Program-made: the position numbers and the translations under genes
Assembly: GCA_015063135.1 (NCBI GenBank)
Contig: SUTA01000003.1
Span: 78,043-142,042, forward strand
Length of the DNA: 64,000 bases
Reading direction: 5' to 3'
Source of the DNA: Thermoplasmata archaeon
Lineage (GTDB): Archaea; Thermoplasmatota; Thermoplasmata; Methanomassiliicoccales; Methanomethylophilaceae
Part shown: piece after piece, positions 367-63,767 of the stretch
Numbering within the stretch: the stretch's first letter is position 1
How the letters are laid out: each line of letters begins with the position of its first letter
The notes under the pieces: model-generated
Seen by the model: the letters and a program-made list of their open reading frames with translations, nothing else
The model's database searches: none
Told to the model about the DNA's origin: nothing

Positions 367-642
367 ATGATGCCGAACACCGACGAGCTGAGGGAGCAGA
401 TCGAGACCATAGACGAGCAGATCATCGACCTCATAGCCACCCGCATGGAGATCGCGGACGAGCTGGCCAAGGCCAAGAAGCAGTCTTCCCAGGAGTACTG
501 GAGCGCGGAGAAGGAGAGGGAGGTCATCAGCAGGTACCACGAGCTCTGCGAGGAGGTCAGCCTGTCGGAGGATGAGGCGCGCCAGATCGCCGAGGTCATC
601 CTCAAGATTTCCAAGGAGCGCCAGAGGCACTACTTCCAGCGA
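367..642 (+). CDS. aroQ: Chorismate mutase (AroQ class), ends at CGA
   Basis: All-helical AroQ-type chorismate mutase, converting chorismate to prephenate for Phe/Tyr synthesis. The 91-residue length is normal for stand-alone AroQ. Visible family features are the opening helix with LREQIETIDEQIIDLIATR, a central KAKK, and a closing helix ending KERQRHYFQ. The codon after this last Q is CGA (640-642). Under the standard code the frame would add six residues and stop at TAG (661-663), but that TAG is part of the TATA box of asd. Ending at CGA frees the promoter from the gene. The start could be either of two adjacent ATGs (367 or 370). Confidence 0.85.
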
Positions 643-654
643 AATCGGGTTCTT

Positions 655-662
655 TTTATATA
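655..662 (+). promoter_or_regulatory. TATA box of asd
   Basis: TTTATATA about 36-43 nt before the asd ATG, implying a leader of roughly 10-15 nt. Its last bases include the TAG that would otherwise look like the aroQ stop. Confidence 0.65.
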
Positions 663-697
663 GGGCGCTGGCATGCGCCTTTTAGAAGGGTTTACAC

Positions 698-4996: not shown

Positions 4997-6808
4997 ATGC
5001 TCCTGAAAGCCCAGTCTATCGCCAAGGCCTTCGGCCCCGTCAAGGTCCTGACCGACGTCAGCCTCCAGATCAACGAGGGCGACAGCATAGGGCTGATAGG
5101 GATCAACGGAGCGGGCAAGAGCACGTTCCTGAAGATCATCCTCGGGGAGCTGAAGCCGGACACCGGGGAGCTCATACGCCAGACCGAGAGGATCGGCTAC
5201 CTGGAGCAGTTCGCCGAGTCCTCGTCGGAGTTCACCGTGAGGGACGTCCTGGGCAGGCCCTACGGGCACATAGAGAACATCAAGCGCAGGCTCAGGGAGA
5301 TAGAGGAGCTGATGGTCGCCGGAGGCGACATAGACTGGAACGCCCTGGCGGAGGAGAACGCGGCCCTGGAGTCGCAGCTCGCCAAGTCCGACATGGACGA
5401 CGAGGAGAACCTCAAGGCCGCCCTGGAGAAGGTCGGGCTCTCGGCGGACCTCATGGACCGCACCATGGACACCCTGTCCGGAGGGGAGAGGACCAAGGTC
5501 ATGCTCTCCAGGATCGTCGTCCAGGCCGAGGACTGCGACCTCCTCGTCATGGACGAGCCCACGTCCCATCTGGACATCAACACCGTGGAGTGGCTGGAGG
5601 ACTACCTCCTGAAGACCCACTGCTCCGTCCTGGTCATCAGCCACGACAGGTACTTCCTGGACAAGATCGCCACCCGCATGCTGGAGATCGACCACGGGAA
5701 GAGCAGGGAGTACAAGGGCAACTACTCCGACTTCATCATGAAGAAGATGCTGGACCTGGACAGGATGGAGAAGGAGTACCGCAAGTACGCCGCCCAGAAG
5801 AGGAAGCAGGAGGAGATCGCGGCGCAGCTCCACAAGGACCAGTGGTTCCTGACCACCCACAAGACCAGGGAGAAGCTCATCGCCAAGATGGAGGCCAAGG
5901 AGAAGCCCGAGGAGAGCAGGGAGATAACGGTCAGGATACAGGCCGCGCACAAGTCCGGCAAGAACGTCCTCACATGCAAGGACCTGTCCGTCGAGCTCGG
6001 CGGGAGGACCATCTTGGAGCATGTGAACCTGGACATCCACAAGGGCGACAAGATCGGCATATTCGGATCCAACGGCGAGGGCAAGTCCACATTGGTCAAG
6101 GCCCTCCTGGAGCAGATCCCGTCCAAGGGCGAGCTCTGGGTGGCCCCCGGCGCCAAGTTAGGGTACTACTCGCAGAACCACGAGCGCCTCGACCCAAAGC
6201 TGTCCGCCGAGGAGCAGATACTCACGGTTATAGGGAAGGACAGGAGGGCGGATGCCAGGCAGATGCTGGCCAGGTTCCTGCTCACCGGTGACGAGGTCGA
6301 GCGGCCCATAGCCACGCTGTCCGGCGGCCAGAGGGCGAGGGTGGCCATGTGCCTGCTCCTCCTGGACGAGACCAACCTGCTGGTCCTGGACGAGCCCACG
6401 AACTACCTGGACATCCCAGCCAAGCACGCCATCGAGGAGGCCCTCACGGAATACGACGGGACCATCCTCACCGTGACCCACGACAGGTACTTCCTCGACA
6501 CGGTCTGCACCAAGATGATCGAGGTCAAGGACCACACCACCAGGTTCTTCACCGGCACGTACTCCGAGATGAAGGGCAGGCCCAACGTTAAGGAGGTCGT
6601 CATGGATGCGGACGAGTACCGCGTCCTGTCCCCGTTCACCAACTGGGTGACCGGGAAGAAGTACGCCAAGGGTGACCGCGTCCTCATCACCCCGGCGGAG
6701 CAGAAGAGCTTCGAGTGGGCCCTCGGCCAGGGCAAGCTCAAGAAGACCGGCGGAAGGCAGAGGAAGAAGGTCAACGTCCAGAAGGACGAGGATAAGAAGG
6801 GGGCGCGA
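4997..6808 (+). CDS. ABC-F family ATPase, ends at CGA
   Basis: Cytosolic tandem-ATPase of the ABC-F class (ribosome-associated translation factors), 603 residues with no membrane segments. First nucleotide-binding domain: Walker A GINGAGKST, signature LSGGERTKV, Walker B with LVMDEPTSHLD. Second domain: Walker A GSNGEGKST, signature LSGGQRARV, Walker B with LVLDEPTNYLD. A charged linker rich in Lys/Glu lies between them. The tail is basic (GGRQRKKVNVQKDEDKKGA), followed by CGA at 6806-6808. With CGA read as Arg the frame would pass through a hairpin and overlap the convergent ZIP gene by 41 nt; with CGA as stop there is no overlap. Confidence 0.9.
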
Positions 6809-14497: not shown

Positions 14498-15627
14498 AAT
14501 ACCACCCCGTTCTCGTCGATGACCTTCTCTAGCGTGCGGCGCTGGTTATCCGTCAGGGGATTGCCGGTGTGCATCTCGAAGAACTGCTCGAACGCCTCCA
14601 AGGGCGATCCGAAGTCCTTCTCTTCCTCGCCGATCACAACGGCCGAACCGCTGGTGGGGGCGATGCGTCTGATGCTGACGATGTTGGGGAACACCTGCCT
14701 GGCCTTCGCCATGGCATCCATCTCGTCGTCCGTCATCTCGATGTAGATGTAATCTTCGCGCCACTCGGCGTTCCTGTTGCTGTCGAGGAGCTGCATCAGG
14801 GGCCCCCTTAGGACCCTCATGTCCCTCAGGGGTTTGATGGGGATCTCCTCCGTCGAGACGCCCGATGCGTCGATGGTTACCAGCACCGCGCATTTGTGAT
14901 CGTCGGCCTCGGAGCTCGAGTACTTCAGCGGGGTGCCGCTGTACACCACGGCGTCCCTGCCCATGTGCTGATGGGAGTGGATGTGCCCCAGGGCGACGTA
15001 GTCGAAACCGTCGAAGGCTGTGTAGCTGACGTTCTCGGTGCCGCCGACGTACACCTTCTCGGAGCCGCGGGTCTCGGGGCCTCCGCTGTTCCCCGTGACG
15101 AACTGGTGCGTCACGAGGATCCTCTTGTGGCCGTCGACGAACTCGGAGTGGGCTATGGCTGCCCTGACTGCGCTCTCGTAATCCGTGATGGACTCATCCT
15201 GGAAAGCCTTGCGCGCATGGACGGGCTTGATGAACGGGAGGAGGTAGATGTCCACGGGGACGTCCCCGTCCTGGCGGGAGTACCTGACCGCTTCCCCGGT
15301 GAAGACGCCGACGATGTGGATGCCCCTGGTCGAGAAGAAGTCCTTGGCGTACTCGAGCCTGGTATCCGAATCGTGATTTCCCGCTATGACGTAGGTCTCA
15401 AGGTCGTTGTCCGCCAGGGCGACGAAGAGGCCGTCTAGGAGCTTCGTGGTCTCCTGGGAAGCGCTGTTGCCGTCATCCAGGATGTCCCCGGCGATGATCA
15501 CCCCGTCGACCTTCTTCTCCACTGCGATCCTGACGATCTCGTCGATCATGTGCTTCTGGTCCTCGGCCAGGTTCCTGTCCCCCAGCCTGATGCCGAGGTG
15601 GAGGTCGGAAACATGGAGGAACCTCAT
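14494..15627 (-). CDS. sbcD: Nuclease subunit SbcD (Mre11 homologue)
   Basis: Calcineurin-like metallophosphoesterase of 377 residues with the canonical metal-binding motifs in order: SDLHLG, GDILDD, GNHDSD and, further on, a GHIHSHQ site. The C-terminal part is the SbcD capping region. It forms the nuclease partner of SbcC. Its ATG overlaps the preceding HTH gene (CGATGA at 15624-15629) and its TGA overlaps the sbcC GTG, so the three genes form one tightly coupled operon. Confidence 0.93.
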   Translation of the reverse strand: MRFLHVSDLHLGIRLGDRNLAEDQKHMIDEIVRIAVEKKVDGVIIAGDILDDGNSASQETTKLLDGLFVALADNDLETYVIAGNHDSDTRLEYAKDFFSTRGIHIVGVFTGEAVRYSRQDGDVPVDIYLLPFIKPVHARKAFQDESITDYESAVRAAIAHSEFVDGHKRILVTHQFVTGNSGGPETRGSEKVYVGGTENVSYTAFDGFDYVALGHIHSHQHMGRDAVVYSGTPLKYSSSEADDHKCAVLVTIDASGVSTEEIPIKPLRDMRVLRGPLMQLLDSNRNAEWREDYIYIEMTDDEMDAMAKARQVFPNIVSIRRIAPTSGSAVVIGEEEKDFGSPLEAFEQFFEMHTGNPLTDNQRRTLEKVIDENGVVL

Positions 15628-16214
15628 CGGAGGTCACCTCCCAAGGGGTGGTGGCCGGAGCTCTTGCGCTCGACACCATCGTAGTACGAGACCTCGTAGA
15701 AAAGGTCCTTGCAGGGGACGATATCGTCTATGATGAAGAATCCCTTGGATTCCTTGTGCTTGTACTCCCCGATGGGGTACAGCTCCCCGGATACCTTCAT
15801 CGAGAGGATCAGGTTGTAACGGGGATCGAACCCCCCTTCGAAGACCACCATTGTTTTCCCGTCCTTGGTGACGGAGATGGTCTTGATGTCACCGTCCCTC
15901 CATTCGTTGGACGCAGTGGGCGGGGCAGGCCTGTAGGTGGCTATGGGCCTTTTCGAGTTGTTGGTGAAGTGGGCATTGCTGTCTTTCCTCATCGATACCA
16001 GCCTTACGCGGGCATCGTTTCCGTCGACGTCCTCTGCGGAGATATAGTCGAAATACATTGCGATGTGCTCCGGGATGCTGTCCCTCCTTTCGGACTCGTA
16101 GTACTCTATGTACCTGTAGAGGGTCGGCCTGGAGATGCCGAAGGCATCAGCCAGATCGGAGATGGAGAGCTTCTTCTTGATGGTCTCCCCCAGATTCGAT
16201 GTGCTGTGCTCCAT
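15627..16214 (-). CDS. HTH regulator in the sbcDC operon, ends at CGA (or next-codon TGA)
   Basis: About 195 residues. The N-terminus ETIKKKLSISDLADAFGISR with PTLYRYIEYY is a helix-turn-helix of the Hin/resolvase or AraC-like kind, followed by a region I do not recognise (VFEGGFDPRYNL, then a C-terminal part with FFIIDDIVPCKDLFYEVSY). As first gene of the sbc operon it may control the operon or act with the nuclease. The start at 16214 is set by a TATATATA box 23-30 nt upstream; a longer frame would begin inside that box. The last codons are CTC CGA TGA. If CGA terminates, the overlap with sbcD is CGATG, the exact analogue of TGATG. Confidence 0.7.
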
Positions 16215-17766: not shown

Positions 17767-17866
17767 AATTCTCCAGATATTATCATGGCATATAACCATA
17801 TCGACTCGTGACACGCCGCCAGGCCAACAGGCCCGTGGGCTCCTTCCGCGCCGGTACTGCCAACCG

Positions 17867-17875: not shown

Positions 17876-17906
17876 CCAGAATCAATCCAGGCGCGAGGTA
17901 AGCATC

Positions 17907-18281
17907 ATGCCAAAGATCTACAAATGTTCCAAATGCAGCACCGCCGTCGAGATCGTCTTCGAGGACTGCTGCATCCCCACCTGCTGCGGGGCCCCCATGG
18001 TCCTCGTCGAGCCCAAGACCGAGGACTTCGTCAAGGAGAAGCACGTCCCCTACATCGAGAAGCAGGCCGGCGGAGTGCTGGTGAAGGTCGGCAAGGAGAC
18101 CGCCCACCCCATGGTCGAGGACCATTACATCGTCTACATCCAGATTTGCGCGGACGGGGTCATCATGAGGAAGTACCTCAAGCCCGGCGACGCGCCCGAG
18201 GCGTTCTTCAAGACCGATGCGTCCAAGATTGTGGCCGTCGAGTACTGCAACAAGCACGGTCTCTGGAAGTCCAACCAGCGA
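17907..18281 (+). CDS. Desulfoferrodoxin-type superoxide reductase, ends at CGA
   Basis: Reduces superoxide to hydrogen peroxide in the cytoplasm of anaerobes. The N-terminal desulforedoxin iron site is present (Cys7 and Cys10 in YKCSKC, and the Cys pair in TCCGAPM). The catalytic iron ligands follow as KEKHVPYIE, TAHPMVEDHY and the C-terminal YCNKHGLWK. The codon three residues after this motif is CGA (18279-18281), giving 124 residues, the normal class II length. With CGA read as Arg the protein would extend 22 residues through its own terminator hairpin and across the TATA box of the next gene. Confidence 0.9.
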
Positions 18282-18372: not shown

Positions 18373-18906
18373 ATGGCCAAGATCGTAGAGTCCAAAGGAG
18401 ACGACGCGAAAGCGACCGCCAGGCACGCCAAGATTGCCAACGAGAAGAAGAAGGCGGAAGAGGACGCCAAGAACAAGATCGAGGACGAGCACTGGAAGGC
18501 CAAGCACGCCGAGGAGAAGCGCAAGGAGGAGATCAAGAAGCTCCCCAAGGACCAGCAGGCCGCCGCTAAGGCCGAGCTGAAGGAGCAGATCCGCAAGCGC
18601 AAGGCCGCCGAGAAGGAGCACAAGGCCAAGATGAGGCAGGAGGCCAGGGAGGCCAAGGAGGCCGAGAGGAAGGCCGCGATGCAGGAGAGGTCCGACAAGG
18701 CCCACGCCGCCGTGGGCGAGAAGAGGGTCGAGGCCGGCGTCAAGAAGTCCGAGATCAAGGAGGAGCGCGATGCGATGGCCACCGAGAAGATCATTGAGAA
18801 GGCCGCCAAGGTCACAGACGATGCCTCCACCGAGGAAGCGTCTGCAGAGGCTCCTGCTGAGGAAGCGCCTGCAGAAACCCCGGCCGAGGAGAAGCCCTCC
18901 GAGCGA
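18373..18906 (+). CDS. Highly charged coiled-coil protein, unknown function, ends at CGA
   Basis: A 177-residue protein made almost entirely of Lys, Glu, Ala and Arg in a continuous predicted coiled coil (for example KLPKDQQAAAKAELKEQI), ending in a low-complexity Ala/Pro/Glu tail (AEAPAEEAPAETPAEEKPSE). I do not recognise a family. The tail is followed by CGA at 18904-18906, then a terminator hairpin. With CGA read as Arg, the frame would continue through that hairpin into the Mg-transporting ATPase and give an implausible fusion of more than 1,100 residues. Confidence 0.75.
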
Positions 18907-22562: not shown

Positions 22563-23396
22563 ATGAATCGGTTCGGCGCGACGATGGCCGCACTGGCGGT
22601 TGTCATTCCTGCCGTCTGCACGGTCATCGCGATTCTCACTATCGAAGATTGGTTCCTCCCGCTGATAGCTGTGTGGATCTTCTACCCCATGATGTGCCTC
22701 GGATTCTATATGGCGAAGGAGAGGACCGGCAGCCGCTGGATCAACGGTGTCGACTTCTCGAAGTACTCTGAGTCGGAGATTGGCGACCTCATGTGCATGT
22801 TCGGGCTCGGGATGTCCCTCGGTTCCGCCGTGCTGATGCTCTCCATCTCATTCATCGCTATGAGCTCGATAGGCATCTACGTCACTATTGTCGGGATAGC
22901 GGTCGCCGTCGCGTGTTTCCTGCTGCCCCTCGCCTTCGGCCGTCCGGGACGCGTCAGGAAGATGCCCGAACTGACCGCAGGGATGACGGTCACGCTGGTC
23001 ATCGGCATGTCGGTCGTCGCCGTGGTGCCCTCGATGCTGATGGCGGAGGGGTCGGTGTACGGGGTGGAGGTGGAGTTCGGCGAAGATGGGTTCACCGTCG
23101 ACGCGCCCATGGAGCACTGGTCCTTCAAGTACCATGAAATCGAGGAGCTGGCACTGTATCCGGACTTCGATAAGGGCAGCCGCATCGCAGGATACGCCAC
23201 GCCCAAGATATGCAGCGGGACCTACAAGACGGACTTCTTCGATCCCGGGAACTACCTGAGGTACCAGCTCGCGTCGTACGCTTCGGAGAAGATGTGCATC
23301 ACGTTCTGGGTGGACGGAAACCTCTATGCCTTCAATCTCTCGGATGATGAATCAACGGCGACAGCCTATGCCGAGCTGGTGAAGCGCGTCCCGCGA
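22563..23396 (+). CDS. Membrane protein of unknown function, ends at CGA
   Basis: 277 residues. Five hydrophobic helices occupy about the first 165 positions (for example AALAVVIPAVCTVIAILTI and AVLMLSISFIAMSSIGIYVT); the last third is a soluble domain ending DDESTATAYAELVKRVP. I do not recognise the family. The codon after that final P is CGA (23394-23396). Reading on as Arg would overlap the Pcc1 gene by about 150 nt in another frame with Arg/Gly-rich junk. With CGA as stop, 16 nt separate the two genes. Confidence 0.75.
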
Positions 23397-25371: not shown

Positions 25372-25943
25372 CGGCTCTTCCCCCCTCTCATGATGATGGC
25401 GATGTATTCGCAGCCGTCCTTGCTGGTGGCGGCCATGCCGTGGGGCTTGGTGGCGTCGAAGTACACGGAATCCCCGGCGATGAGGTTCTCCTCGTGGCCG
25501 TCGTAGACGAACCTGAGGCTGCCGGAGACGATGTAGTCGAACTCCTGTCCCTCATGGGAATCGGTGCGGATCTCGCCCTCCTGGTCCTCCTCGACGTACG
25601 GGGCCCTGACCAGGAACGGGTCGGCGGCCTTGTCGGCGAAGTACGGGGCCAGGTGGCGGTAGTCGAACCCGCTCAACCTCTGGACGGGCAGGCCCATGCC
25701 GTCGTGGGTGACCACGTAGCCCTTGAGGCGGGGGTTCTCGCCGGTGATGAGCTCGACCGCGTCGATGCCGAAGCGGTCGGCGCATTTGGAGATGAATGAG
25801 AAGGGGAAGTCGACCGACCCCTGCTCGCACTTTATGTACTGGTCCTCGGCGAGACCGGTGGCGTCCGCCATCTCGGCCGTGGTGATGCCGCAGAGCTCGC
25901 GCATGGCCATGATGCGCTGGGAGATCTCGGAAATGCCGTTCAT
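25371..25943 (-). CDS. XRE-family regulator with cupin sensor domain (first copy), ends at CGA
   Basis: A 190-residue regulator: N-terminal helix-turn-helix (ISQRIMAMRELCGITTAEMA) and a C-terminal cupin_2 barrel (DSHEGQEFDYIVSGSLRFVY, then GDSVYFDATKPHGM). Such proteins sense a small ligand, often the substrate of the adjacent enzyme. The last residues are IIMRGGKS followed by CGA (25371-25373), which overlaps the ligase ATG as CGATG. Read as Arg, the frame would run 237 nt further inside the ligase gene in another frame. The two sister regulators end at the equivalent position with TGA. Confidence 0.85.
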
Positions 25944-34776: not shown

Positions 34777-35306
<530 letters not shown>

Positions 35307-42645: not shown

Positions 42646-43248
42646 TCGGGCTTCTGACGGACCAGCGCTGCCATCGGGCGCATCCCGGTCGGAGGCCATC
42701 ACGCCGTTCATTATCACGAATATGCAGCGTTCCGTGAGCTCGTCAGTCGGCTCGGTATCGTTGGAGAACACGAAAGCGGCCATGCCATGAGCTATGGCCA
42801 CCATGCACTTTATGTCGAACGACAGGTGGGGGTCGGCCCTCATCAGGTCCGAGTACTTCTCGTCAAGGATCCTGAGGATGACCTCCTCGGGCGTCTTGTA
42901 CCTCGGCGGCAGGGGCTCATGGCTATGGGAGTACTGGATGAAGAAACGGGCCTTCAGCGGATTGTTCTTCAGATAATCGAAGTACGCTCTCCATAGCTCG
43001 GTCAGATGCCGCTTGAGGGAGTCCCTGTCATGCGTCTCGGGGGCCTCTACATCGTCGAATGTGCGCCTCACCTCGCGGCAAATCAGGCCGAAGCAGCTCG
43101 ATAGGAGGTTGGACCTGTTGCCGTAGTAGTGGATGATCAGGGTCTTGCTGCAGCCGGCCTCCTTGGCCACGGCGTCCAGGGAAACGGAGTCCCCTTTCTC
43201 GTGATACAGCCTGATGGTGGTCAGCAGGATGTCCTCTCTCTTGTTCAT
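42646..43248 (-). CDS. TetR-family transcriptional regulator, ends at CGA
   Basis: 200 residues. The N-terminal helix-turn-helix is typical TetR (KREDILLTTIRLYHEKG, then SLDAVAKEAGCSKTLIIHYY) with an all-helical ligand domain behind it. The start at 43248 is preferred; an upstream ATG frame contains an in-frame CGA (43276-43278). The C-terminus is DGSAGPSEA followed by CGA (42646-42648). As Arg it would gain 16 residues read from a T-rich terminator-like stretch before TAA. Its target may be the neighbouring hydrolase/nitroreductase genes or the surface cluster. Confidence 0.82.
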
Positions 43249-43457: not shown

Positions 43458-44183
43458 TCGGAACAGTCTGCCAAGGATGCCCTTGGCCTTCTTCATGGGG
43501 TCCTTGAGGATCGGCTCCACCACGCGCCTGCCGTGGCCTATGACGAATGCCGTCCTGAGGGGATTCTCGGGTTTGGGGATGAAATGCTTGTCGAACCTCT
43601 CCGGGTCCAGCTTGTAGGCCCTCATGATCGCGGGCGATGGGAATCCGCGGATGCCCATGCCGAAGCCCTCGGCCATCATCCGCTCGGTCGCAATGGCGGC
43701 CCTCTCGTCGCTGTCCGCGAACAGGAACAGGACCTGCTGGCCGTCCCAGAGGACCTTGCTGCGCTTCTGGACGTCGTCCATGCTCTCATCGTGCCCCTCG
43801 AAGAGCCTCTGGCCCTTCTCCCTGGCGACCTCCCAGCAGTCCCTCATGTACAGGTTGAGCTTGGAGCCCTGCAGGACCCTGATCTGGCACCTGCCCTTCG
43901 CATGGTCCATCGCCCTGAACAGCTTGCCGAACTCAGCATCCGAGACGAGCTGGCCGTTGAACAGCTCGGTGCGCTTGATCCCGTCGATGGGATTGTCCGA
44001 GCCGTCGGACACCAGCCTGATGGCGTTCCTGGGGCAGGATGCCTCGCAGTGCCCGCATCCGATGCATCCCCTCCCGGTCTCGCGGGCCTTCTTCTCATGG
44101 ATCTCGAGATTGCTCTTGATGCACACTTGGACGCATTTCCCGCATCCGATGCATTTCAGAGTGTTGATTTTGGGGTGCTGCAT
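43458..44183 (-). CDS. Ferredoxin-nitroreductase fusion flavoprotein, ends at CGA
   Basis: 241 residues. Two 4Fe-4S clusters come first (KCIGCGKCVQVCIKSN and CIGCGHCEASCPRNA), then a nitroreductase-like FMN fold whose landmarks are the AMDHAKGRCQIRVLQ region and AIATERMMAEGFGMGIRGFP. Such fusions take electrons from the clusters to reduce a substrate at FMN. The end GILGRLF is followed by CGA (43458-43460); a second in-frame CGA and a TGA follow within seven codons. The start lies 1 nt after the CGA stop of the upstream hydrolase. Confidence 0.82.
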
Positions 44184-44184
44184 C

Positions 44185-44970
44185 TCGCTGCATCCTGTTG
44201 TCGCTGATGAGCTTCTTCAGCGCATCGGCGTACAGCGAGGGGTCGATGGTGTGGCCGACCCCGGGGATCTCCAGGTAGACGGATCCCTTGATGGCGTCCC
44301 TCACGGCATGGGCCTTCTTCGGTTCGACCATGATGTCCTCGGCGCCGTGGACGACAAGCGTGGGCACCTTGATCTCGTCGATCCTGTCGCCGATGTCGAA
44401 CGTGTCCATGGCCTTCATCTGCTCCAGTAGCTTGGTCGGATCCTCGAAGCGTTTCGGGGTGGGCACGTCCATGCCCTTCTCGGCCAGCCCGGCGAAGAAC
44501 GTCTCGGGGAAGCAGAACGATGTGATCACGATGTGGATCGCCTCCGCGGTGCAGACGCCCTCCTTCGCGAGCCGGGTCGTGTTCTGCATGAAGTAGGCGG
44601 ACCTGTACGGCCTGTACTGGAATGAAGAGACGAGGGTGAGAGTCTGCACCCTCTGCGGATGCCTGACGGCGATGGACATGGCGGCCTCCGACCCCATGGA
44701 CCAGCCGACTATGTGGGCCTTGTAGATGTGGAGGTGGTCCATCAGGTGGATCACGTCATCGGCGATCTCGTCGATGCGGATCTCCTCCTTCTCGTACTCG
44801 GTCATCCCCACACCGCGGTTGTCCATGGTGATGACCCTGCATCCCTTGAGCAGGGGCACCATGCCCTTCCAGAAGCGGTGGTTGGCACCTATGCCCCCGA
44901 TGAGGATGACGGGTTCCCCCTCGCCCTCCTCCTCATAATAAAGCTTGACGCCTGGCAGTTCCGCGAACAT
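44185..44970 (-). CDS. Alpha/beta hydrolase, ends at CGA
   Basis: 261 residues of alpha/beta-hydrolase fold: oxyanion region ILIGGIGANHRFWKG, nucleophile elbow GWSMGSEAAM with the catalytic serine, LVVHGAEDIMV with the acid, and GVGHTIDP with the histidine. The substrate is unknown (an ester or similar). The start at 44970 follows an ATAAAAAA box by about 25 nt; an upstream extension would run into the divergent tgtA promoter. It ends ISDNRMQ at CGA (44185-44187), 1 nt before the next ATG; as Arg it would overlap that gene by about 90 nt. Confidence 0.85.
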
Positions 44971-47509: not shown

Positions 47510-48184
47510 TCGGTCCTCGATCTCCCATGTCAGGGTCACGCTGTCGGAGGTCGACACGTCCTCGGGGTCGATGTCGATGTTGGCACAGATATTACTGCAG
47601 CATTCCATGGCGGAGCGACTGCGGTAACCCTCGTCGTAATCATCGTAGTCGTAGCTACCGCCGCGCTTGACCTCGAGCAGGCGCCCCAGCCTCGCTCCGG
47701 CGGCCTCGACTATCATCCTGGCCTCCTTCGTGGCGTTCTCCGTTGCCTTCCTGAGCGCTTCGTTCTTCGCCGCCTCCGGATCGCTGTTCACGAAATCCAG
47801 GTGGATCCTCGGTGCGATCCCGTTGTCCAGGATGTTGTTCACCAGCTTCGTGAGGAGCCCGTTATCGTTGGGGAACTCGAAGCGGAAGTCCTGGTGATAT
47901 GAGAACCCGTCCGCGAACTTCTTGTACACGGCCCTCCCGTCCTTGTCCACCCCGACCTTCTTCTCTTTGAAGTGCTGGCTCACCGAGAAGTTGGAGGTCT
48001 TGAGGGTGTCTCTCTTGATCCCGGCATCCTGGGCTGCGTCCTTGAACAGGGTCGTGCTCTCGGAGACCGCCTCCAAGGCCTTGGAGAATGTGGGGGCGAT
48101 GCCCTCCACCGATGCCCTCACGACCGTCATGTCAGCGGGCGACTTCACCATCGCGCGCCCCTTCACTGTTATGGTCCTTGCCAT
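47510..48184 (-). CDS. SIMPL-domain (DUF541) protein, ends at CGA
   Basis: 224 residues. The family opens with TITVKGRAMVKSPADMTVVR and has the typical IDPEDVSTSDSVTLTWEIED closing strand. SIMPL proteins are widespread; periplasmic stress and signalling roles are reported for some bacterial members, but this one has no signal peptide. The start at 48184 has a GGAG site in front. CGA at 47510-47512 follows exactly after the closing strand; as Arg the protein would gain 15 residues read from the promoter of the next gene. Confidence 0.82.
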
Positions 48185-48430: not shown

Positions 48431-48892
48431 ATGGCAGTGACGGTCATGAATCCCGATGAGAAATTCTTGAGGATGGCGGTAGAGGAGGCCCACATAGGGA
48501 TCCGCGCCGGCCACGGAGGCCCGTTCGGCTGCGTCATAGTCCGCAACGGGGAGATTGTCGGGAAGGGGCATAACCGCGTCCTGGTCGATACGGATCCCAC
48601 CGCCCACGGCGAGATAGTGGCAATCCGCAGCGCATGCGCCGCCCTCGGGACCATAGAGCTATCGGATTGCACACTGTACACATCCTCGGAACCCTGTCCG
48701 ATGTGCAAGGCGGCCATATCCTGGGCGGGGCTGGGAAGGGTGGTGTACGCGGCATCGGTGCGCGAGGCCAACGACGTGCTCGGGTTCAAGGACCAGATGA
48801 TGGCCGAGGCCTTCAGGAAGGGAGAGGATCTGGCAGCAGTAGAGCAACTGTATGTGGAAGGATACCTGGAGCCGTTCCTGGAATACAAGCGA
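48431..48892 (+). CDS. Guanine/nucleoside deaminase (cytidine-deaminase fold), ends at CGA
   Basis: 153 residues. Zinc-dependent deaminase with the catalytic HGE (DPTAHGEIVAI) and the SEPCPMCKAAI cysteine pair, resembling guanine deaminase GuaD. The first in-frame CGA is at 48890-48892, after EPFLEYK; a second lies seven codons on (48911-48913), after MLGRIY. By comparison with GuaD, whose C-terminus ends in an aromatic residue, the second could be the original end, so this gene carries tandem CGA codons. Beyond them the frame is plainly non-coding, so one of the two must terminate. Confidence 0.8.
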
Positions 48893-52544: not shown

Positions 52545-53105
52545 TCGGTGGTACACTATCGGGGGGCAGTCATCGAGGGGCTGCCCGGCGAGGTACCTGC
52601 GGACGTCATCTGCATCAAGGTTCTTACATATTACCGATGCAGCCTGATTGTACTCGTCCTTGGTGGAGATGCAGGCATCCGTGGAGATGTAGGGGGTGAG
52701 GCCGTGGTCGAAGGCCCCGTAGTATGTGGAGATGACGCAGTATTGCGTGACGGTGCCCACGAGGAGGACGGAATCGCACCCGGCCTCTCTGACGGCCTCT
52801 GCGAGCCGGGAGTCCTTGAAGCAGTTCATGTGGAGCTTATCGACGATGATGTCGCTGTCGGCGATCGTCATCTCTTCCATGAACTCGTCCGCATCGGGGC
52901 CCTTGTAACGGGTGTGCTCGTCCCCGCCGATGAAGCGGACGTGGATGACCGGGCGACCGGCGTCGCGGAACATCGCCGCGATCTCGTTCATCCTGGCGAT
53001 GGGCGCGTCATGCTGCCTGGCCATGTCCTCGTGCGTGAGCACGAACTTCTTCTGCATGTCGACCATGACCAATGCGAGCTTCTTTCCGAGCGGGTCTATC
53101 CTCAT
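52545..53105 (-). CDS. Isochorismatase-like cysteine hydrolase, ends at CGA
   Basis: 186 residues with the family layout: LALVMVDMQKKFV (catalytic Asp), the Lys region in DIIVDKLHMNCF, and the nucleophile Cys in VGTVTQYCVISTYYGAFDHG. It may hydrolyse an amide such as nicotinamide or an isochorismate-like compound. The start at 53105 follows a TATATAAT box. The end is IVYH then CGA; as Arg it would be fused in frame to the ABC ATPase through a nine-base linker, a fusion with no functional logic. CGA as stop leaves two normal-length proteins. Confidence 0.85.
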
Positions 53106-54844: not shown

Positions 54845-55269
54845 ACGACTCCGGCGTCCTTGGGATGCCGCTCAGGATCATGATATCCATGATGGTCATC
54901 GCCCTGATGGTCCCCGCACTGGTCTCAATGTCGCAGGACATGGACAGGGCCGCCGACGAGGCGGAGGGTGCCGCCATCGCGGAGCAGGTCGCCGATGCCG
55001 CCACCCGGGCCTACCTCTCCGGGGTCGGCGGCTCGGTGACCTCATCTCTCGAGATCCCGTTCGGGAGGGCCCTGGCCATCGGCGGGGACGGGGCGGACGC
55101 GTACACCATCCGCATCTACTCCGACGGGGTGCAGACCGGCCGCGTGGTCATGGACAATCCGCCCATCAGGCTGCTGGGCCCGGAGACGATGCTCGAGGGC
55201 GGCGCCGTGCTGGTGCTCGAGACCGTGGCCGTCGACGGCAGGCTGTGCGTGGCGGTGAGCGCGTCATGA
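54841..55269 (+). CDS. Pilin-like membrane protein, second of three
   Basis: 142 residues from a GTG start that overlaps the previous stop (GTGA). N-terminal NDSGVLGMPLRIMISMMVIA is a pilin-like helix; the rest is a small soluble beta domain ending CVAVSAS. Its stop overlaps the next gene as ATGA. No specific family recognised. Confidence 0.6.
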   Translation: MNDSGVLGMPLRIMISMMVIALMVPALVSMSQDMDRAADEAEGAAIAEQVADAATRAYLSGVGGSVTSSLEIPFGRALAIGGDGADAYTIRIYSDGVQTGRVVMDNPPIRLLGPETMLEGGAVLVLETVAVDGRLCVAVSAS

Positions 55270-55640
55270 TCGAGTTCACGATGTCCAGGGCGGTCCTGTG
55301 CATCTGCGGCGCGATGATGCTGGCCGCGGCGGTGGCCGCGGCATCCGCCGGGGAGGAAGGGTGGAGGTCGGGGATGGGCGATGCCCTGGCCAGGGACGTG
55401 GCCGGGATGCTGGACGCCTTCGAGGCCTCCAGCATCGACGAGATAACGCTCTCGGGATGGGACATACTGCCATCGCAGTCGTGCAGCCTCTCCGTGGGAG
55501 ACCATGCCGTCAGGGTGCACTCGCCCGACGGCGACTTCATGGCGTACACGCAGTTCCCCGGAAGGTTCGAGCTGTCGTACGGGGAGGAGAAGATCCTGAG
55601 CTCGGTTCCCGAACACCTCGGCTATGTGCCTCACGGTCGA
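55266..55640 (+). CDS. Pilin-like membrane protein, third of three, ends at CGA
   Basis: 124 residues: N-terminal helix (LCICGAMMLAAAVAAASAG) and a small soluble domain with SLSVGDHAVRVHSPDGD and FELSYGEEKIL. The first in-frame terminator of any kind is CGA at 55638-55640; without it the frame would run on for another 366 nt antisense to the cysteine desulfurase. Even so, the gene overlaps the 3' end of the convergent desulfurase by 39 nt. Confidence 0.55.
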
Positions 55641-56900: not shown

Positions 56901-57806
56901 ATGGCATCCCTGAGGACCTCCGCGGGAGGAATCGAGCTGGAGCTGCCCGGCATGGTGGCATCCGGCATTATGGACGAGACGGGCCCCACGATGGCCCGCA
57001 TGCTGGAGCTCGGAGCCGGCGCCGTCGTTTCGAAATCGGTGGGCACGGAGCCCAAGCCCGGCCACGCCAACCCCTGCTTCACCGAGGTCACCGGGGGGTA
57101 CGTAAATGCAATGGGGCTGCCCAACCCGGGGATCGAGCTCTTCGCCGAGGAGATGGCGGAGGCCGTGGGGAAGGGACCCATAGTCGGATCCATCTACGGG
57201 GCCGGGCCGGACGAGTTCGCCAGGCTGGCCGGGAGGATGGAGGACTACGGCGCCAGCGCCGTGGAGCTGAACCTGTCCTGCCCCCACGCCAAGGGCTACG
57301 GGATGGAGGTCGGCACCGACCCGAGGATGGTCAGGGACATCGTGTCCGCCGTCAAGTCAGCCGTGAAGGTGCCGGTCTGGGCGAAGCTGACGCCCAACAC
57401 ACACATACTGCCGGACATCGGCAGGGCCGTCCAGGACGCGGGAGGGGATGCCGTCGTAGCGATCAACACGCTCAAGGCCATGGTCATCGAGCCGGAGTTC
57501 GCCAGGCCGCTGCTGAGCAACAGGTTCGGCGGGCTGTCCGGGCCCTGCGTGAAGCCTGTCGGGGTCAGGGCCGTGTACGACCTCAGGACAGTCCTCGACA
57601 TCCCGATAATCGGCGTCGGGGGCATAGCGTCGTGGAGGGACGCGGCCGAGTACATCATGGCCGGCGCGTCCGCGTTCCAGGTCGGCAGCGCCATAGGGAC
57701 GGTCGGCATCGACGTCTTCCAGAGGATCAACTCCGGGCTGTCCGCATTCATGGACGAGTACGGCTACCGCGACATCGCATCCATGGTGGGGGTGGCCCAT
57801 GAGCGA
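56901..57806 (+). CDS. pyrD: Dihydroorotate dehydrogenase, class 1B catalytic subunit, ends at CGA
   Basis: 301 residues, the usual length. Makes orotate in pyrimidine synthesis. Landmarks: ELELPGMVASGIMDETG, VELNLSCPHAKGYGM with the catalytic Cys loop, VWAKLTPNTH, and the FMN-phosphate segment IIGVGGIASW...MAGASAFQVGSA. The last codons are CAT GAG CGA (CGA at 57804-57806), overlapping the pyrK start by 8 nt. With CGA as Arg the frame would cover all of pyrK in a second frame as Arg/Gly-rich nonsense, giving 556 residues. This is one of the strongest cases. Confidence 0.93.
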
Positions 57807-58612: not shown

Positions 58613-58999
58613 GTGGACGTCCCCCGCAAGGTTTTCAAGGGCAGGGAGTGCAGGATCGACGAGGACGAGGCCGCGAGGTTCTCCACATTGGTCATGGCTA
58701 GGTACCCCTGGCTGACCCGCAACTCCGTCGACGTCCTCCTGAAGAAGGCCCGCATGGAGATGCTCAGGGTCCGCGACGAGGAGACCAAGGGGAAGGAGTA
58801 CAGCAGGACGCTGGCCGACGAGGGCAGGCTGGACGAGGCCATAGAGCACATGAGGATCCACCTGGACCTGGATCCCGATGACGCCGATTCGTGGTACGCC
58901 CTGGGGGACCTGCTGTGCAAGAACGGCCAGGCCGCCGAGGGCTACAAGGCGTACCACCGCGGCATGGAGCTCGCCACCAAAGGGAAGAGGAAGCGCCGA
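58613..58999 (+). CDS. TPR-containing small protein, ends at CGA
   Basis: About 128 residues from GTG at 58613. The frame is open further up with sensible residues (LTQSDHITVAHGNLI) to a CTG at 58568 near the pyrK stop, so the start is uncertain. The second half is a tetratricopeptide pair (LADEGRLDEAIEHMRIHLDL, DDADSWYALGDLLCKNG), a protein-binding fold. It ends GKRKR then CGA (58997-58999), overlapping the next ATG as CGATG. Read as Arg it would add three residues and end in TAG, the only other apparent amber stop in the window. Confidence 0.7.
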
Positions 59000-60006
59000 T
59001 GTGGCGCCTAGGCTCGCTGGAGCTCGACGGGCGCGTCATACTCGCCCCCATGTCCCGCTATTCGTACCTGCAGTACAGGGAGTTCATGATGCGCTTCGGC
59101 GCCTGCATGTGCGTCACCGAGATGGTCTCTGATTCGGGCATAGTCTACGGGGACAGGCGCACCCTGCCGTACCTGGAGACCGGGGAGGACCATCCCGTGG
59201 CCGTCCAGATATTCGGGGACGACCCGGAGATGATGGGGAGGGCGGCCGCGAGGGTGCTGGAGTCCAACCCGTCCGTGGATGCCATAGACATCAACATGGG
59301 ATGCCCGGTGGAGAAGGTGGTCCGCAGGGGCGCGGGTTCGTCGCTCATGAAGGACCCGGCGCTTTGCGGCAGGATCATGGCATCGGTGAAGGCCGCCGTC
59401 GATGTGCCGGTAACGGCGAAGATACGCCTGGGGTGGAGCCCCGGGAACATGACATTCAGGGAGGTCATCGCGGAGCTGGAGTCCGCAGGGGCGGACGGCA
59501 TCGGCTTGCATGTCCGCACACGCGCCGAGAAGTACGCCGGCACGCCGCATTACGACCTGGTCGGGGGCCTGCGCGACGAGATGTCCGTGCCGCTCATGAT
59601 CTCCGGGAACATCTACACGCCGGAGGATGCGGGGAGGGCGATGGAGATCACCGGCGCCGACGCCGTCATGGTCGCGAGGGGAGCCGTGGGCAACCCCGCG
59701 CTCATATCGAGGATGGATTCCATGCTGAGGATGGGGGAGGTCCCCGAGGAGCCCACCGTCTCGCAGCAGGCGGAGTGGTGCCTCGAGCTGGCCAGGATGA
59801 CTATAGATGCCGAGGGCGAGGAGCGCGGATGCAAGATCATGCGCAGCATCGCGGCGAACTTCATGACCGGCGTGAGGTACTCCCACCCCGTCAGGCTTGA
59901 GCTCACCCGCATATCCACGTACGCGGAGCTGGAATCGATAATGACGAGGGTATGCGAGGCCAGGGGCGGAGAGAGGATCACCGCCCACGGCCGTGGGATA
60001 CTCCGA
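58999..60006 (+). CDS. dus: tRNA-dihydrouridine synthase family protein, ends at CGA
   Basis: 335 residues. FMN-dependent TIM barrel reducing uridines in tRNA. Family motifs: VILAPMSRYSYLQYREFM, VAVQIFGDDPEMM, DAIDINMGCPVEKVVRRGAG with the catalytic Cys, the HVRTRAEKYAG segment, and MISGNIYTPED...VMVARGAVGNP. The end is RITAHGRGIL followed by CGA (60004-60006), two bases before the CGA of the convergent cobN-like gene. With CGA as Arg the two genes would overlap by over 400 nt. Confidence 0.9.
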
Positions 60007-60011
60007 GGTCG
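60004..60011. other. Back-to-back convergent CGA stops
   Basis: CGAGGTCG: CGA ends the plus-strand dus gene at 60004-60006 and, on the other strand, CGA ends the cobN-like gene at 60009-60011. Only 2 nt separate them, within the palindrome CCGAGGTCGG (one mismatch pair). Confidence 0.8.
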
Positions 60012-63000
60012 GCCCCTGTCGTTGTACTCCTCGATCCTCTCCTCGAGGTCGAGGTAGATGTCCTTCAGCTTCTCGAGGGTCTCCGGCTTGACGTCCCACA
60101 GCCCGCGGTCCACGGCCTCCAGGAGGCGGTTGAGCATGTCCATCATGGCGTGGGGGTTCTCATCCTCCATCCATTGCCTGGTGTCGTCGTCGAACAGGTA
60201 GCGCTCGGCTAACCCCTCGTACATCCAGTCCTCGACTACATCCGATGTGGCGTCCCATCCGAACGTGTACTCGGTCAGGTTGGACACCTCCGACACCCCG
60301 CGGTACCCGTGCTTCTTGAGCCCCTCCACGAATTTCGGGTTGAGGACCTTGCTCCTGTACAGGAACTGCAGCTGGTCGTTGGTGCTGCGGATCCTCGTCC
60401 TGTCGGGGTCCGACCCGTCCCCGACGAAGGTGAGGGCGTCCTCCCTCCCGTAGGCCCTGACGAAGGAGTTCATCCCTCCCAGGTACCCGTACACGTCGTC
60501 CATGTCAAGTATGTCGATCTCCTTGTCCGGCATGTTCTTGATCGTCACGCCGACCTTCGAGAACCGCTTGACGAACTGGTCCTTCATGCTGACCGCGGTC
60601 ATGCCCCTGCCGTAGGCGTAGCTGCCCCACTCGGTGTAGATGTCCGCCAGGTCCTGCACGGTCTCCCAGCTCCCGTTCTCGATGGCGTGGTTCACTCCGG
60701 GGCCGTAAGCCCCGGGCGGGCAGCCGAATATCCTGACCGAGTTCCTGAGCCTCGCCTCATCCACGGAGATCCCGGAGGCCATGGCCTCCACGATGTCCTT
60801 CCTGAGGTTGGACGCGAGGTAGTTCTCCTCGTCGGACTCGTCGAGGGCGGCCACCATCTTGACCGCGTCGTCTATCATGTCTATGAGGTTGGGGAACGAG
60901 TCCCTGAACAGCCCGGTTATCCTGACGGTGACATCGATCCTGGGACGGCCCAGCTCCTCCAGCGGGATGACCTCCAGGCCGATCACCTGGCCCCCTACGG
61001 GGGACCAGACCGGCTTGACGCCGAGCAGCCACAGGATGTAGGCCACGTCGTCGCCGTTGGTCTTCATGGTGTCCGTGGCCCAGATGATGAATCCCACTTC
61101 CCTGGGGTAGCAACCCCTCTCTTCCATGTAGCGTTCGATCATCTGGTCGGCCATGCGCTTCCCTATTTCCCAGGACGATCTCAGCGGGATGGAGTCTGGA
61201 TCCACGGAGTAGTAGTTCCTGCCCATCGGGAGTATATCCGCGTTGCCGCGGGTGGGAGCGCCGGAGGGGCCGGGCAGGACGTAGCCTCCCTCGCACCCGT
61301 GCATCAGGTTGTCCATCTCGTCGGTCATCCGCAGGAGGTTCGGTACCAGGGTGTCGCAGATGTACGAGACGGTGGCCCTCACTGGTTCCGTGAGGGAGCC
61401 GATGAGCTCCTCGGCAGCCTCCAGGGACGGCCCCTTCGAGAATCCTGTGGCCGCCATCGTCGATATGAGCCCGGAGGCCTTCGAATCCACATCGTCCAGC
61501 AGGGCGCTGTTGAGCTTCCCTCCCGTGGTGCCGGAGGGGTCGTCGACGAGCGATTGCACATCGATGCCGCAGGCCTCCCCTATCGCGTCCCTCAGGGCCG
61601 GGACGTCCCCGTTCCTGACGCGGGTGAGGGTGTACACGGACTCCTCGAGCCGCTCCCCCTCGGGCGCCCTCCCGAGTATGTGGAGCCCGTCGCGGATGAC
61701 GTTGTCCCTGATGTCCGTGAGGTAGTCGTGGAGCTGCTCCACGTGGTTCTCGAAATCCTCGACGGTGATGTCTTCCGGAAGGTGCAGGTCCTTGAGCAGG
61801 TCCGCCTCCCTGGCGGCCTCCAGGACCTCCTCCACCAGGGACATGTTCTTCTCCAGGCGGGTCTCGCTCCTCGCCTTGAAGTACTCCTGGAGCGCGTTCT
61901 CCACCCTGCTGAGCTCCTCATAAGAGCCCGCGCGGGCCATGGTCGGGCACATGTGCCCTATGAGCACCGCCTCCGACCTCCTCTTGCACTGGATCCCCTC
62001 CCCGGGGTCGTCTATGATGTAGGGGTAGATGTGCGGGACGCCGTCCAGGACCAGGTCGGGATAGCACTTCCCGGAGAGCCCCACGCTCTTGCCCGGGAGC
62101 CATTCCAGGGTGCCGTGGGTGCCCATGTGGATTATGACGTCGGCCTTGAAGTCGTTCTTCAGCCACCTGTAGAATTCGAGGTACTGGTGTGTGATGGGCA
62201 GGACGGGATCGTGGTATATGGACTCGTTCTTGTCGGCCCATCCCCTCAGGGGCTGGAACCCGATGAATATGTTGCCGTTGACGATGCCGGGTATTACGAT
62301 CCTCCCGCCCTCCACGCACACATCGCCGGGGGGCGCTCCCCACTGCTCCTCCATCTGCCTCCTGTTGAATTCGGGAATCTTGGAATAGTGCTCCTGGTAC
62401 CGCTGCTTGGTGACAAGGTCTGCGGCCTTCTCCTTGATCCTCTCCGACGACGACCATTCGAAGTCGTTGGTTATGTTGTCGAGAATCTCGTCTATGAGGG
62501 CCCTGCCGTCGGCCGGGACGTGGTCCAGGGTGTATCCCTCGGACTCGTACCTCTTCAGCATGTCGCTGACGCTCTCTATGGTGTCCAGCCCGGCGGCGTT
62601 GCCAATCCTTCCGGAATCCTGCCTGGATTGGTACATTAGAACCGCCACCCTCCTCTCGGATGGAGGGGTCCTGCGGAGCCTCGCCCATGCCATTGCCATC
62701 TCGGCGAGGTGGTCTATCCTGTCCTCGAGCGGGGTGAACCTCCTGGCCTTCCCCTTGCCGCCCTCCATGCTGCATATGGGCACCCCGATTATCTGTCCGT
62801 CGATCTCCGGCCAGAACACGCTGTTCTTGAGGTCGTTCTTCCCGATGCCCTGGGCGCTCTCCTCGTAATCGGCGAAGTGCCTGCTCACGCTCATGGTCTG
62901 TATGACCGGCACGTCCAGCAGCGTGCTGTAGAAGTTCTGATCGTCGGGGGTCCTCACGCCGGACACGTCCTGCCGCGAGTTGTTCAGCTGCGAGAACGGC

Positions 63001-63767
63001 GTCGCCATGATGAGGGCGTCGATGCTGGGCTTCCCGCCGGACATGAAGTACTTCCGGACCACGTCCACCGTGCCCCTACGGCCGGCGACCTTGCTGGAGG
63101 AGGCCCCGAAGAAGACGGGGATGACGTTGGCGCCCATGGACTCCAGTCTGCGGATGAGCGAGCGTATGTGGTCCTGATTGTCGTAGATCCACATGTTGGA
63201 AGTGTACAGTATGCCGATGGTCATCCTGCCCTCGACCAGATGCGATGCGTACTCCTCGGGGGTGACATCCCTGCCGAAATCCGGGTGGTAGATGCCGTCC
63301 GGGCGGGTCGTGATCGGCTCCGGCGCATCCAGGATCCCGTTGAGGCGGTTGTGCAGCCATCTCACGATGCTACGGTCGTTCTCGGGGCCGCGGTTCCTCA
63401 TGTACTCCCCGAGAAGGATGAAGTCCTTGTCGTCGCCCTTGAACAGGTCCCTGTAGGCCAGCCTGATGTCCATGTCGCCGGAGAACACCAGGACGTAGCC
63501 GGGGCACTCCTTCAGGACCTCCTCGAACGTGGCGAACCTCTTCATCCTGGTGGGGTCGGTCATGCACCTCATCAGGACCAGGTCCGCCGCTTTCGCCCTG
63601 TCTGCCAGGTCATGGTACACGAAGGGGTCGTCGTCGACATCGTCGGCGTTGACGCAGAAGAAATCGCACTCCACGCCGATATCCTCGCAGGCCTCCCTGG
63701 CCGGTGCTTCCATCGTGCGGGCGTCGACGCTCTGGACTGAAATGTAGACGATTCTGAGGGCTGTCAC
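60009..63767 (-). CDS. cobN: CobN / magnesium-chelatase H-type metal chelatase, ends at CGA
   Basis: About 1,252 residues, the size of CobN/BchH large subunits that insert Co, Mg or Ni into tetrapyrroles with ChlI/ChlD-like ATPases. Landmarks: IHMGTHGTLEWLPGKSVGLS, a GRNYYSVDPDSIPLRSSWE segment, and ADQMIERYMEERGCYPREVG. In methanogens such proteins are candidates for cobalamin cobalt insertion; no partner is nearby. The start is probably GTG at 63767, 26-33 nt below TTTAAAAT; ATG 63788 and 63809 lie on or above that box. It ends EEYNDRG at CGA. I read all codons and found no other CGA. Confidence 0.88.

What the first reader, a model, noticed from the sequence alone, without database searches (positions are those of the whole stretch)
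367..63767. CGA appears to be a translation stop codon across the whole window
Twenty-three genes have their first in-frame CGA exactly where the protein family ends. With CGA as Arg these genes run on through terminators, promoters or neighbouring genes. Examples are pyrD, korC, superoxide reductase, SufS-like, dus, cobN-like, ABC-F, isochorismatase, TetR, SIMPL and hydrolase. About 10,000 interior codons read by eye contain no CGA, while CGG, CGC, CGT, AGG and AGA are all present and CGA is common out of frame. TGA (34 genes) and CGA (23) look interchangeable; TAA ends 3 genes and TAG none. The simplest model is reassignment of CGA from Arg to stop, helped by loss of tRNA-Arg(UCG) and a release factor accepting CGA. 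I know of no described code with this. C-to-U editing of CGA to UGA would look identical in DNA.
Basis: partly seen in the sequence, partly recalled or inferred. Interest (0 to 1): 0.97.

Follow-up and report, generated by a model that had tools for sequence, protein, structure and literature searches.

The report
Arginine codon CGA became a stop
In this archaeal genome the triplet CGA, which codes for arginine in nearly all life, stands at the end of about four called genes in ten and coding sequence almost never goes on past it, so CGA is most likely a stop codon here, which would be the first change from an amino acid to "stop" known in a cell's own genome rather than an organelle's.

Summary
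The finding holds. A gene model over 604 kb of this archaeon (window plus 27 stretches, about a third of the genome) genes: TGA ends 293, CGA 242, TAA 37, TAG 21. Coding continues past CGA in 4 of 269 places (TGA 11/293, AGG 4625/5962). Of 70 CGA-ended genes with a usable homolog, 66 end within 10 residues of it; relatives that use CGA as Arg fail that test. None of 43 tRNAs is tRNA-Arg(UCG). The single aRF1 gene itself ends in CGA and carries two unique substitutions beside its NIKS motif. I found no described sense-to-stop change in a cellular genome.

The search led further. Some relatives (G001, G027, G029) also end genes in CGA but keep tRNA-Arg(UCG). In 25 of 25 other distinct aRF1 sequences of the genus clade exactly one CGA survives in frame, always at codon 77, flanked NCT-CGA-CTN; in 11 of 11 Methanomethylophilus-type sequences it is codon 24. 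This suggests, unproven, that aRF1 terminates at CGA in its own message as feedback. Recognition by aRF1 is inferred; RNA editing is not excluded.

The parts
640..642 (+). CGA stop of chorismate mutase type II gene (367-642)
   Evidence: Pfam CM_2 complete at residue 87 of 98, CGA is codon 92
6806..6808 (+). CGA stop of ABC-F ATPase gene (4997-6808)
15627..15629 (-). CGA stop of HTH-domain gene (15627-16214); a TGA follows at once
18279..18281 (+). CGA stop of superoxide reductase gene (17808-18281)
   Evidence: Desulfoferrodox domain ends at residue 116, CGA is codon 119 of the stretch scanned
18904..18906 (+). CGA stop of a Lys/Glu-rich protein gene (18373-18906), in frame with the next gene
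   Evidence: not given to Pfam
23394..23396 (+). CGA stop of gene 22584-23396 (no Pfam family)
25371..25373 (-). CGA stop of HTH-cupin regulator gene (25371-25943)
25946..25948 (-). CGA stop of ACT / beta-lactamase-fold gene (25946-27382)
35304..35306 (+). CGA stop of korC-like (POR gamma) gene (34773-35306)
   Evidence: POR domain complete to 172/173 before the CGA
35391..35393 (-). CGA stop of large secreted-type protein gene (35391-37544)
   Evidence: not given to Pfam
42646..42648 (-). CGA stop of TetR-type regulator gene (42646-43248)
43458..43460 (-). CGA stop of ferredoxin-type gene (43458-44183)
44185..44187 (-). CGA stop of alpha/beta hydrolase gene (44185-44991)
47510..47512 (-). CGA stop of SIMPL gene (47510-48184)
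   Evidence: SIMPL profile complete 205/205 before the CGA
48890..48892 (+). CGA stop of deaminase gene (48431-48892)
   Evidence: domains end at residues 107-110 of 153; CGA as Arg adds 263 codons
50949..50951 (+). CGA stop of gene 49260-50951
52545..52547 (-). CGA stop of isochorismatase gene (52545-53105); CGA as Arg would fuse it to the ABC ATPase gene downstream
55638..55640 (+). CGA stop of gene 55266-55640
   Evidence: not given to Pfam
55602..55604 (-). CGA stop of SufS-like aminotransferase V gene (55602-56807)
   Evidence: profile complete 371/371 before the CGA
57804..57806 (+). CGA stop of pyrD gene (56901-57806)
   Evidence: DHO_dh profile complete 291/291 at residue 284; CGA is codon 302
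58997..58999 (+). CGA stop of TPR gene (58613-58999); the A opens the ATG of the next gene (CGATG)
60004..60006 (+). CGA stop of dus gene (58999-60006)
60009..60011 (-). CGA stop of cobN-like gene (60009-63767)
   Evidence: profile 1089/1090 complete before the CGA

Best explanation
In this archaeal genome coding sequence stops at CGA in 242 of 593 called genes and goes on past it in 4 of 269 tested places, so CGA is most likely a stop codon, predicted to be read by the single release factor aRF1. The tRNA that would read CGA as arginine, tRNA-Arg(UCG), was not found among 43 tRNAs (shown; the assembly is 87% complete). The inferred path: in this family aRF1 came to tolerate C in place of U at the first stop position, CGA became ambiguous and was purged from genes, CGA then spread as a stop by TGA-to-CGA mutation, and here the tRNA was lost, which made the change complete. 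Some relatives look like earlier stages: CGA ends genes while tRNA-Arg(UCG) is kept and one in-frame CGA remains in the aRF1 gene, where competition between aRF1 and the tRNA would act as feedback (inferred).
For: Before/after test: own CGA 4/269, lowest of the codons tested. Model score CGA-stop 102,243 against CGA-Arg 87,965. Homolog ends: own CGA-ended 66/70 within 10 residues and 0 longer by >20, TGA-ended 75/78; against standard-code calls of relatives 55/62 and 69/70. Negative controls outside the genus, homolog longer by >20 residues: G035 7/7, L112 6/6, L111 4/4, L102 3/3, G034 2/2, G033 2/2, L144 2/2, L105 1/1, L108 3/4, L101 2/3, L127 5/7. tRNA: own lacks UCG (patterns 52, 53); G007, one contig, has every type read in own plus UCG. 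aRF1: one copy found, ends in CGA where relatives end, two substitutions (65 K>N, 66 N>H) at genus-invariant sites next to NIKS, equal to human eRF1 69 and 70. CGATG stop/start overlaps, 15. A published simulation, seen as passages, predicts that loss of eRF1 Arg68 drops the penalty for a first-position C from about 6 to 1-2 kcal/mol (PMC5681627); the residue here is Met64.
Against: No peptide, RNA or biochemical data. 12.5% of the genome is missing, and the tRNA scan misses some genes (no tRNA-Tyr or tRNA-Trp is typed in own or in G007), so a tRNA-Arg(UCG) could be hidden. Met in place of Arg68 also occurs in Thermoplasmatales with 2 to 9 in-frame CGA in aRF1 (L155-L161), so it is not sufficient. 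The two own aRF1 substitutions are absent from relatives that also end genes in CGA, so they are not necessary. G001, G027 and G029 keep tRNA-Arg(UCG) while using CGA stops, which the simple tRNA-loss model does not explain. Four of 70 own CGA-ended genes do not match homolog ends within 10 residues. Pooled over 21 genus relatives the homolog test is weaker: CGA 37/51 within 10 and 8 longer, TGA 456/465.
Confidence: 0.86

Rival explanations
1. C-to-U RNA editing turns CGA into UGA in mRNA before translation; the code itself is standard.
For: CGA and TGA ends fit homolog ends alike, and DNA alone cannot tell the two apart.
Against: It needs editing of hundreds of messages; the one context looked at, the +4 base after CGA stops, is mixed: A42 G58 T112 C30. 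The missing tRNA-Arg(UCG) and the aRF1 changes would be coincidence. I know of no mRNA editing of this kind in archaea (recalled).
Confidence: 0.06
2. CGA is an unassigned codon: ribosomes stall there without a tRNA and are cleared by rescue factors, not by aRF1.
For: No cognate tRNA found.
Against: Four genes in ten, including aRF1 itself, would end by stalling. Relatives G001, G027 and G029 have the tRNA and still end genes in CGA. A slip of one base at CGA cannot give a stop codon (frames NCG or GAN).
Confidence: 0.05
3. CGA is only a rare, avoided arginine codon and the pattern is a gene-calling artefact or sequencing error.
For: CGA is rare in many genomes of the family (G071: 1 of 17,887 codons), and in G007, G003 and G005 the few CGA 'ends' with a homolog are false, 4 of 4 homologs longer.
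Against: In this genome 269 CGA lie after coding sequence and 4 are followed by more; 66 of 70 fit homolog ends; control genomes behave differently in the same test.
Confidence: 0.01

Closest known systems
Sense-to-stop reassignment in organelles: UCA/UCG in sphaeroplealean mitochondria (PMC6821328, passages), UUA/UCA in peDinoflagellate plastids and UUR in pedinophyte mitochondria (PMC12574857, passages), AGA/AGG in vertebrate mitochondria (recalled; human case in an abstract listed)
   Same: A sense codon occurs only at gene ends, its tRNA is missing, and the release factor is altered near codon-reading residues.
   Different: A cellular archaeal genome, not an organelle with few genes; a different codon (CGA); the archaeal/eukaryotic release factor family, not bacterial-type RF1/RF2.
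CGA/CGG reassignment to Trp in Absconditabacteria (PMC8629427, passages)
   Same: The same arginine codon leaves its meaning in a prokaryote.
   Different: There it is sense-to-sense in low-GC genomes (the four CGA/CGG clades span 0.26-0.38); here sense-to-stop at about 60% GC. Codetta states that it cannot detect sense-to-stop changes (PMC9825746, passages).
Autoregulation of bacterial RF2 (prfB) by an in-frame stop codon (recalled)
   Same: In relatives of this genome an early in-frame codon that the release factor may read lies in the release factor's own gene.
   Different: prfB uses a +1 frameshift; here the frame continues unshifted and a tRNA-Arg would read through. No assay exists. The window's own genome lacks the site.
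Pyrrolysine use of UAG in methanogens
   Same: PylS is present here too.
   Different: Pyl is stop-to-sense; CGA here is sense-to-stop.

Membership tests
sense-to-stop codon reassignment | codon found at ends of genes and not inside coding sequence | tested here: met
   coding continues past CGA in 4 of 269 places in 604 kb; Pfam on 20 window genes
sense-to-stop codon reassignment | protein ends agree with homologs | tested here: met
   66 of 70 within 10 residues; 55 of 62 in the other form of the test
sense-to-stop codon reassignment | cognate tRNA missing | tested here: met
   none of 43 tRNAs, two pattern searches; assembly 87% complete, so met for the assembly only. Not met in relatives G001, G027, G029
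sense-to-stop codon reassignment | release factor changed at codon-reading residues | tested here: inconclusive
   K65N and N66H beside NIKS are found in this genome alone among those looked at, but other CGA-stop relatives lack them
sense-to-stop codon reassignment | termination at the codon shown by peptides or assay | not testable with these tools
   no proteomics or biochemistry
autoregulated release-factor gene (prfB type) | conserved in-frame stop early in the release factor gene | tested here: inconclusive
   the codon is conserved in relatives: CGA77 in 25 of 25 distinct genus-clade sequences, CGA24 in 11 of 11 Methanomethylophilus-type; that it acts as a stop there is inferred; absent from the window's own genome (CGC77)
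autoregulated release-factor gene (prfB type) | programmed +1 frameshift at that codon | tested here: not met
   the reading frame continues unshifted through CGA
autoregulated release-factor gene (prfB type) | feedback of the factor on its own synthesis | not testable with these tools
   needs an assay
C-to-U mRNA editing | U in RNA where DNA has C | not testable with these tools
   no RNA data

The most novel reading that the evidence does not exclude
Across Methanomethylophilaceae CGA is a codon caught changing sides: aRF1 reads it as stop, it survives in frame almost only in aRF1's own gene, where aRF1 and a dedicated (in one clade crippled, C33) tRNA-Arg(UCG) compete and so set aRF1 levels; when the tRNA is lost, as in this genome, CGA becomes a full stop codon. 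It is the first sense codon turned to stop in a cellular genome, and the release factor's own feedback site is the last arginine meaning of the codon.
Probability: 0.5. Interest if true: 0.98.

Novelty: new variant of a known kind. Interest (0 to 1): 0.95.

Why it matters
The sense-to-stop changes that my searches showed are all in organelles with few genes; PMC12574857 (2025, passages) calls a plastid case the first outside mitochondria. A cellular genome with CGA as stop would show that a release factor of the eRF1/aRF1 family can capture a sense codon, would explain why a screen of 250,000 genomes could miss it (Codetta cannot detect sense-to-stop), and means that public proteins of this lineage carry false C-terminal tails, as seen for aRF1. 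The family offers a graded series (CGA nearly absent, CGA stop with tRNA kept, CGA stop with no tRNA found), so the long-debated route of codon reassignment can be tested step by step.

Tried and rejected
A blast-based codon count with stop-to-stop ORFs was spoiled by conserved antisense frames and is not used. A model trained on this genome fails on AT-rich relatives (no genes in L110, L118, L140, L155, L156, L159, L160), so they say nothing. In one search loci under 7 kb were skipped. CGA-ended calls in genomes that use CGA as Arg are mostly false because homologs run on (list in the For line). The same is so in G007 (1 of 1 with a homolog), G003 (2 of 2) and G005 (1 of 1), so CGA is not a stop in every genus member. 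I first thought TAG was read through widely: 194 of 218 TAG hits lie in antisense frames, but 5 of 8 in-frame TAG ends in the test do run on. I first thought tRNA-Arg(UCG) absent across much of the genus; a BLAST search missed divergent copies that a relaxed pattern found. That pattern's list was cut off before G004, G022, G016, G021, G024, G015, G017 and G008, so they are unknown; G013 showed six hits, none TCG. That own aRF1 lost CGA77 cannot be said: own is sister to the other genus-clade rows. An early strict filter missed L084 and L087, read again.

Literature: searches listed no cellular sense-to-stop change; only open-licence PubMed Central papers are covered, no preprint server. I saw passages of PMC8629427, PMC9825746, PMC12574857, PMC6821328, PMC4482090, PMC5681627 and PMC8211752, none whole.
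Full report
What the window is. It is G000:C18:78043-142042 of a 1.86 Mb archaeal assembly in 40 contigs, 87.5% complete. The nearest named records are metagenome genomes titled Candidatus Methanomethylophilaceae archaeon, Methanomassiliicoccaceae archaeon or Thermoplasmata archaeon. The genome holds pyrrolysyl-tRNA synthetase.

Check of the observation. For the genome I took 27 stretches of 20 kb besides the window, 604 kb in all. Calls with CGA as stop: 593 genes, 174,313 codons, ends TGA 293, CGA 242, TAA 37, TAG 21, score 102,243. Calls with CGA as Arg, retrained: 550 genes, 301 CGA, score 87,965. The model was seeded on long ORFs without CGA. The test that depends less on the code scores CGA as neutral and asks: after 30 codons that look coding, do the next 30? 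CGA 4/269, TGA 11/293, TAA 2/63, TAG 41/218 (mostly antisense frames), CGC 1942/2450, AGG 4625/5962, AGA 225/383, CGG 150/367. Over the codons tested CGA is lowest. In the called genes CGA occurs 2,601 and 11,418 times in the other two frames.

Homologs. Own CGA-ended genes with a usable homolog: 70 of 242; 66 end within 10 residues of the homolog's TGA or TAA end and none is longer by more than 20 in the homolog. TGA control: 75 of 78. Against standard-code calls of relatives: 55 of 62 for CGA with 2 longer by more than 20, 69 of 70 for TGA. Relatives outside the genus that use CGA as Arg fail the same test: homolog longer in G035 7/7, L112 6/6, L111 4/4, L102 3/3, G034 2/2, G033 2/2, L144 2/2, L105 1/1, L108 3/4, L101 2/3, L127 5/7. 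Pfam on 20 of the 23 window genes read through CGA: 19 gave families, none of the listed best stretches crosses the CGA; the isochorismatase and ABC ATPase genes would fuse. Fifteen stops overlap the next start as CGATG. The public protein cluster of this aRF1 carries a tail of 63 residues after the CGA (P0002, 472 residues, 13 members).

tRNA. Rfam finds 43 tRNAs. ARAGORN types 42 of them, Arg tct, cct, gcg, ccg, no tcg; one intron-bearing gene was read by eye as CAU. G007, a one-contig genome of the genus, has 43, of which 42 are typed: every type read in own, plus Arg tcg. Neither list holds tRNA-Tyr or tRNA-Trp, so the scan is not exhaustive. Two pattern searches find no TCG tRNA in the own genome.

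Release factor. One aRF1 match is found. Its gene has no CGA inside and ends ...ILRYKVS-CGA where relatives end. At sites invariant in the other 25 distinct genus-clade sequences it differs at ten, two of them next to each other beside NIKS: 65 K>N and 66 N>H. These align with human eRF1 69 and 70 without gaps. Among the 120 homologs listed (of 2,183), 118 have a readable motif and only its own cluster has this pair. The residue that matches human Arg68 is Met64. A simulation paper predicts that losing Arg68 cuts the penalty against first-position C, CGA named, from about 6 to 1-2 kcal/mol (PMC5681627, passages). Met64 is also in Thermoplasmatales with 2 to 9 CGA in aRF1, so it can at most be permissive.

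Relatives. G001 ends 26 of 99 genes in CGA and G027 42 of 160; coding continues past CGA in 1 of 35 and 1 of 45. G029: 18 of 106, 1 of 12; G021: 19 of 123, 2 of 20. Homolog ends within 10 residues: G027 9/10, G001 6/8, G029 6/8, G021 6/7, G009 4/5, G026 3/5, G008 1/2; pooled over 21 genus relatives 37 of 51, with 8 longer, against 456 of 465 for TGA. Most misses in the CGA-stop species fall in one gene with a variable C-terminus. In nine of 13 genus relatives tested (G030, G001, G027, G029, G008, G026, G015, G020, G016) the only CGA that continues is at the place of aRF1 codon 77; in G021 and G009 it is one of two; in G007 none continues; in G014 the one is elsewhere and its aRF1 was not in that set (codon numbering). 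In G007, G003 and G005 the few CGA ends with a homolog are false (4 of 4 homologs longer), so CGA is rare sense there. G001, G027 and G029 keep a tRNA-Arg(UCG) with a normal CTTCGGA loop. In eight genomes (G007, G019, G030, G025, G003, G012, G009, G023) the loop is CCTCGA, with C in place of the near-universal U33 (that U33 matters is recalled); CGA is almost gone in G007 (6 of 1,689 Arg codons) and G030 (4 of 1,450). In another genus, COG_1 (7 of 24 genes, 5 of 5 homolog ends), UBA78 (2 of 2), SIG2 (1 of 1) and Methanomethylophilus sp. 1R26 (2 of 3) also end genes in CGA, though samples are small; G071 has 1 CGA in 17,887 codons.

The conserved CGA inside aRF1. From 27 loci of the genus clade I took 25 distinct sequences (two loci, L094 and L149, are placed in the clade by the tree only, and L149 is partial). 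In 25 of 25 codon 77 is CGA, and none of 418 other conserved Arg codons is; the flanks are NCT-CGA-CTN in all 25, own has GCC-CGC-CTC. In 11 of 11 Methanomethylophilus-type sequences codon 24 is CGA, as TAY-CGA-GGM. Against over-reading: codon 185 (CGT) and codons 49 and 188 (AGG) are invariant too, and the 15-codon window around 77 is not unusually conserved (0.58 against a mean of 0.64). Methanoplasma-type genes also carry CGA24 (L101, L103, L104, L105) although CGA looks like Arg there. So a feedback role is a hypothesis. A +1 shift as in prfB is not used, since the frame continues.

Mechanism, with shown and inferred parts. Shown: CGA ends genes, tRNA-Arg(UCG) not found, aRF1 changed and itself ended by CGA. 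Inferred: aRF1 reads CGA; ambiguous CGA was purged first; the tRNA was kept in relatives to let aRF1 be made; its loss completed the change. A slip of one base at CGA gives NCG or GAN, never a stop, so a frameshift cannot explain termination. Editing to UGA is not excluded by DNA.

Known or new. Reported sense-to-stop changes that I found are in organelles (PMC6821328, PMC12574857, passages). The 250,000-genome screen reports CGA only as sense-to-sense (PMC8629427, passages) and its method cannot see sense-to-stop (PMC9825746, passages). Searches listed no cellular case. I file it as a new variant: the kind is known from organelles; the cellular setting, the codon and the release factor family are new.

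Noticed in passing
[quoted passage not shown]
   Followed up: partly
L276:300-374 (G007) and seven more genomes: tRNA-Arg(UCG) with C at position 33 in eight genomes, two of which were checked and have almost no CGA: perhaps a weak tRNA that mainly serves aRF1 codon 77.
   Followed up: partly
aRF1 of L084 and L149; of L087 and L089: NIKS changed to NIRS in G001 and L149; GTE loop Gly27 changed to Ser in G008 and G021. G001, G008 and G021 end genes in CGA; L149 was barely sampled.
   Followed up: partly
public protein P0002: The public prediction of this aRF1 (13 members) carries a 63-residue tail past the CGA; other proteins of the lineage likely do too.
   Followed up: no
P0004 (89% like own aRF1): Ends ...KVNRECQ, four residues past the usual end; possibly another aRF1 gene that ends at CGA.
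   Followed up: no
window 35391-42511: A row of large secreted-type protein genes on the minus strand, one of which ends in TAG.
   Followed up: no
window 23692-31827: Three acyl-CoA-synthetase-like genes, each followed by or beside an HTH-cupin-like regulator gene.
   Followed up: no
aRF1 codon 185 in the genus: CGT at codon 185 is invariant in 25 of 25 and in own, within a stretch of high synonymous conservation near the GGQ loop; unexplained.
   Followed up: no
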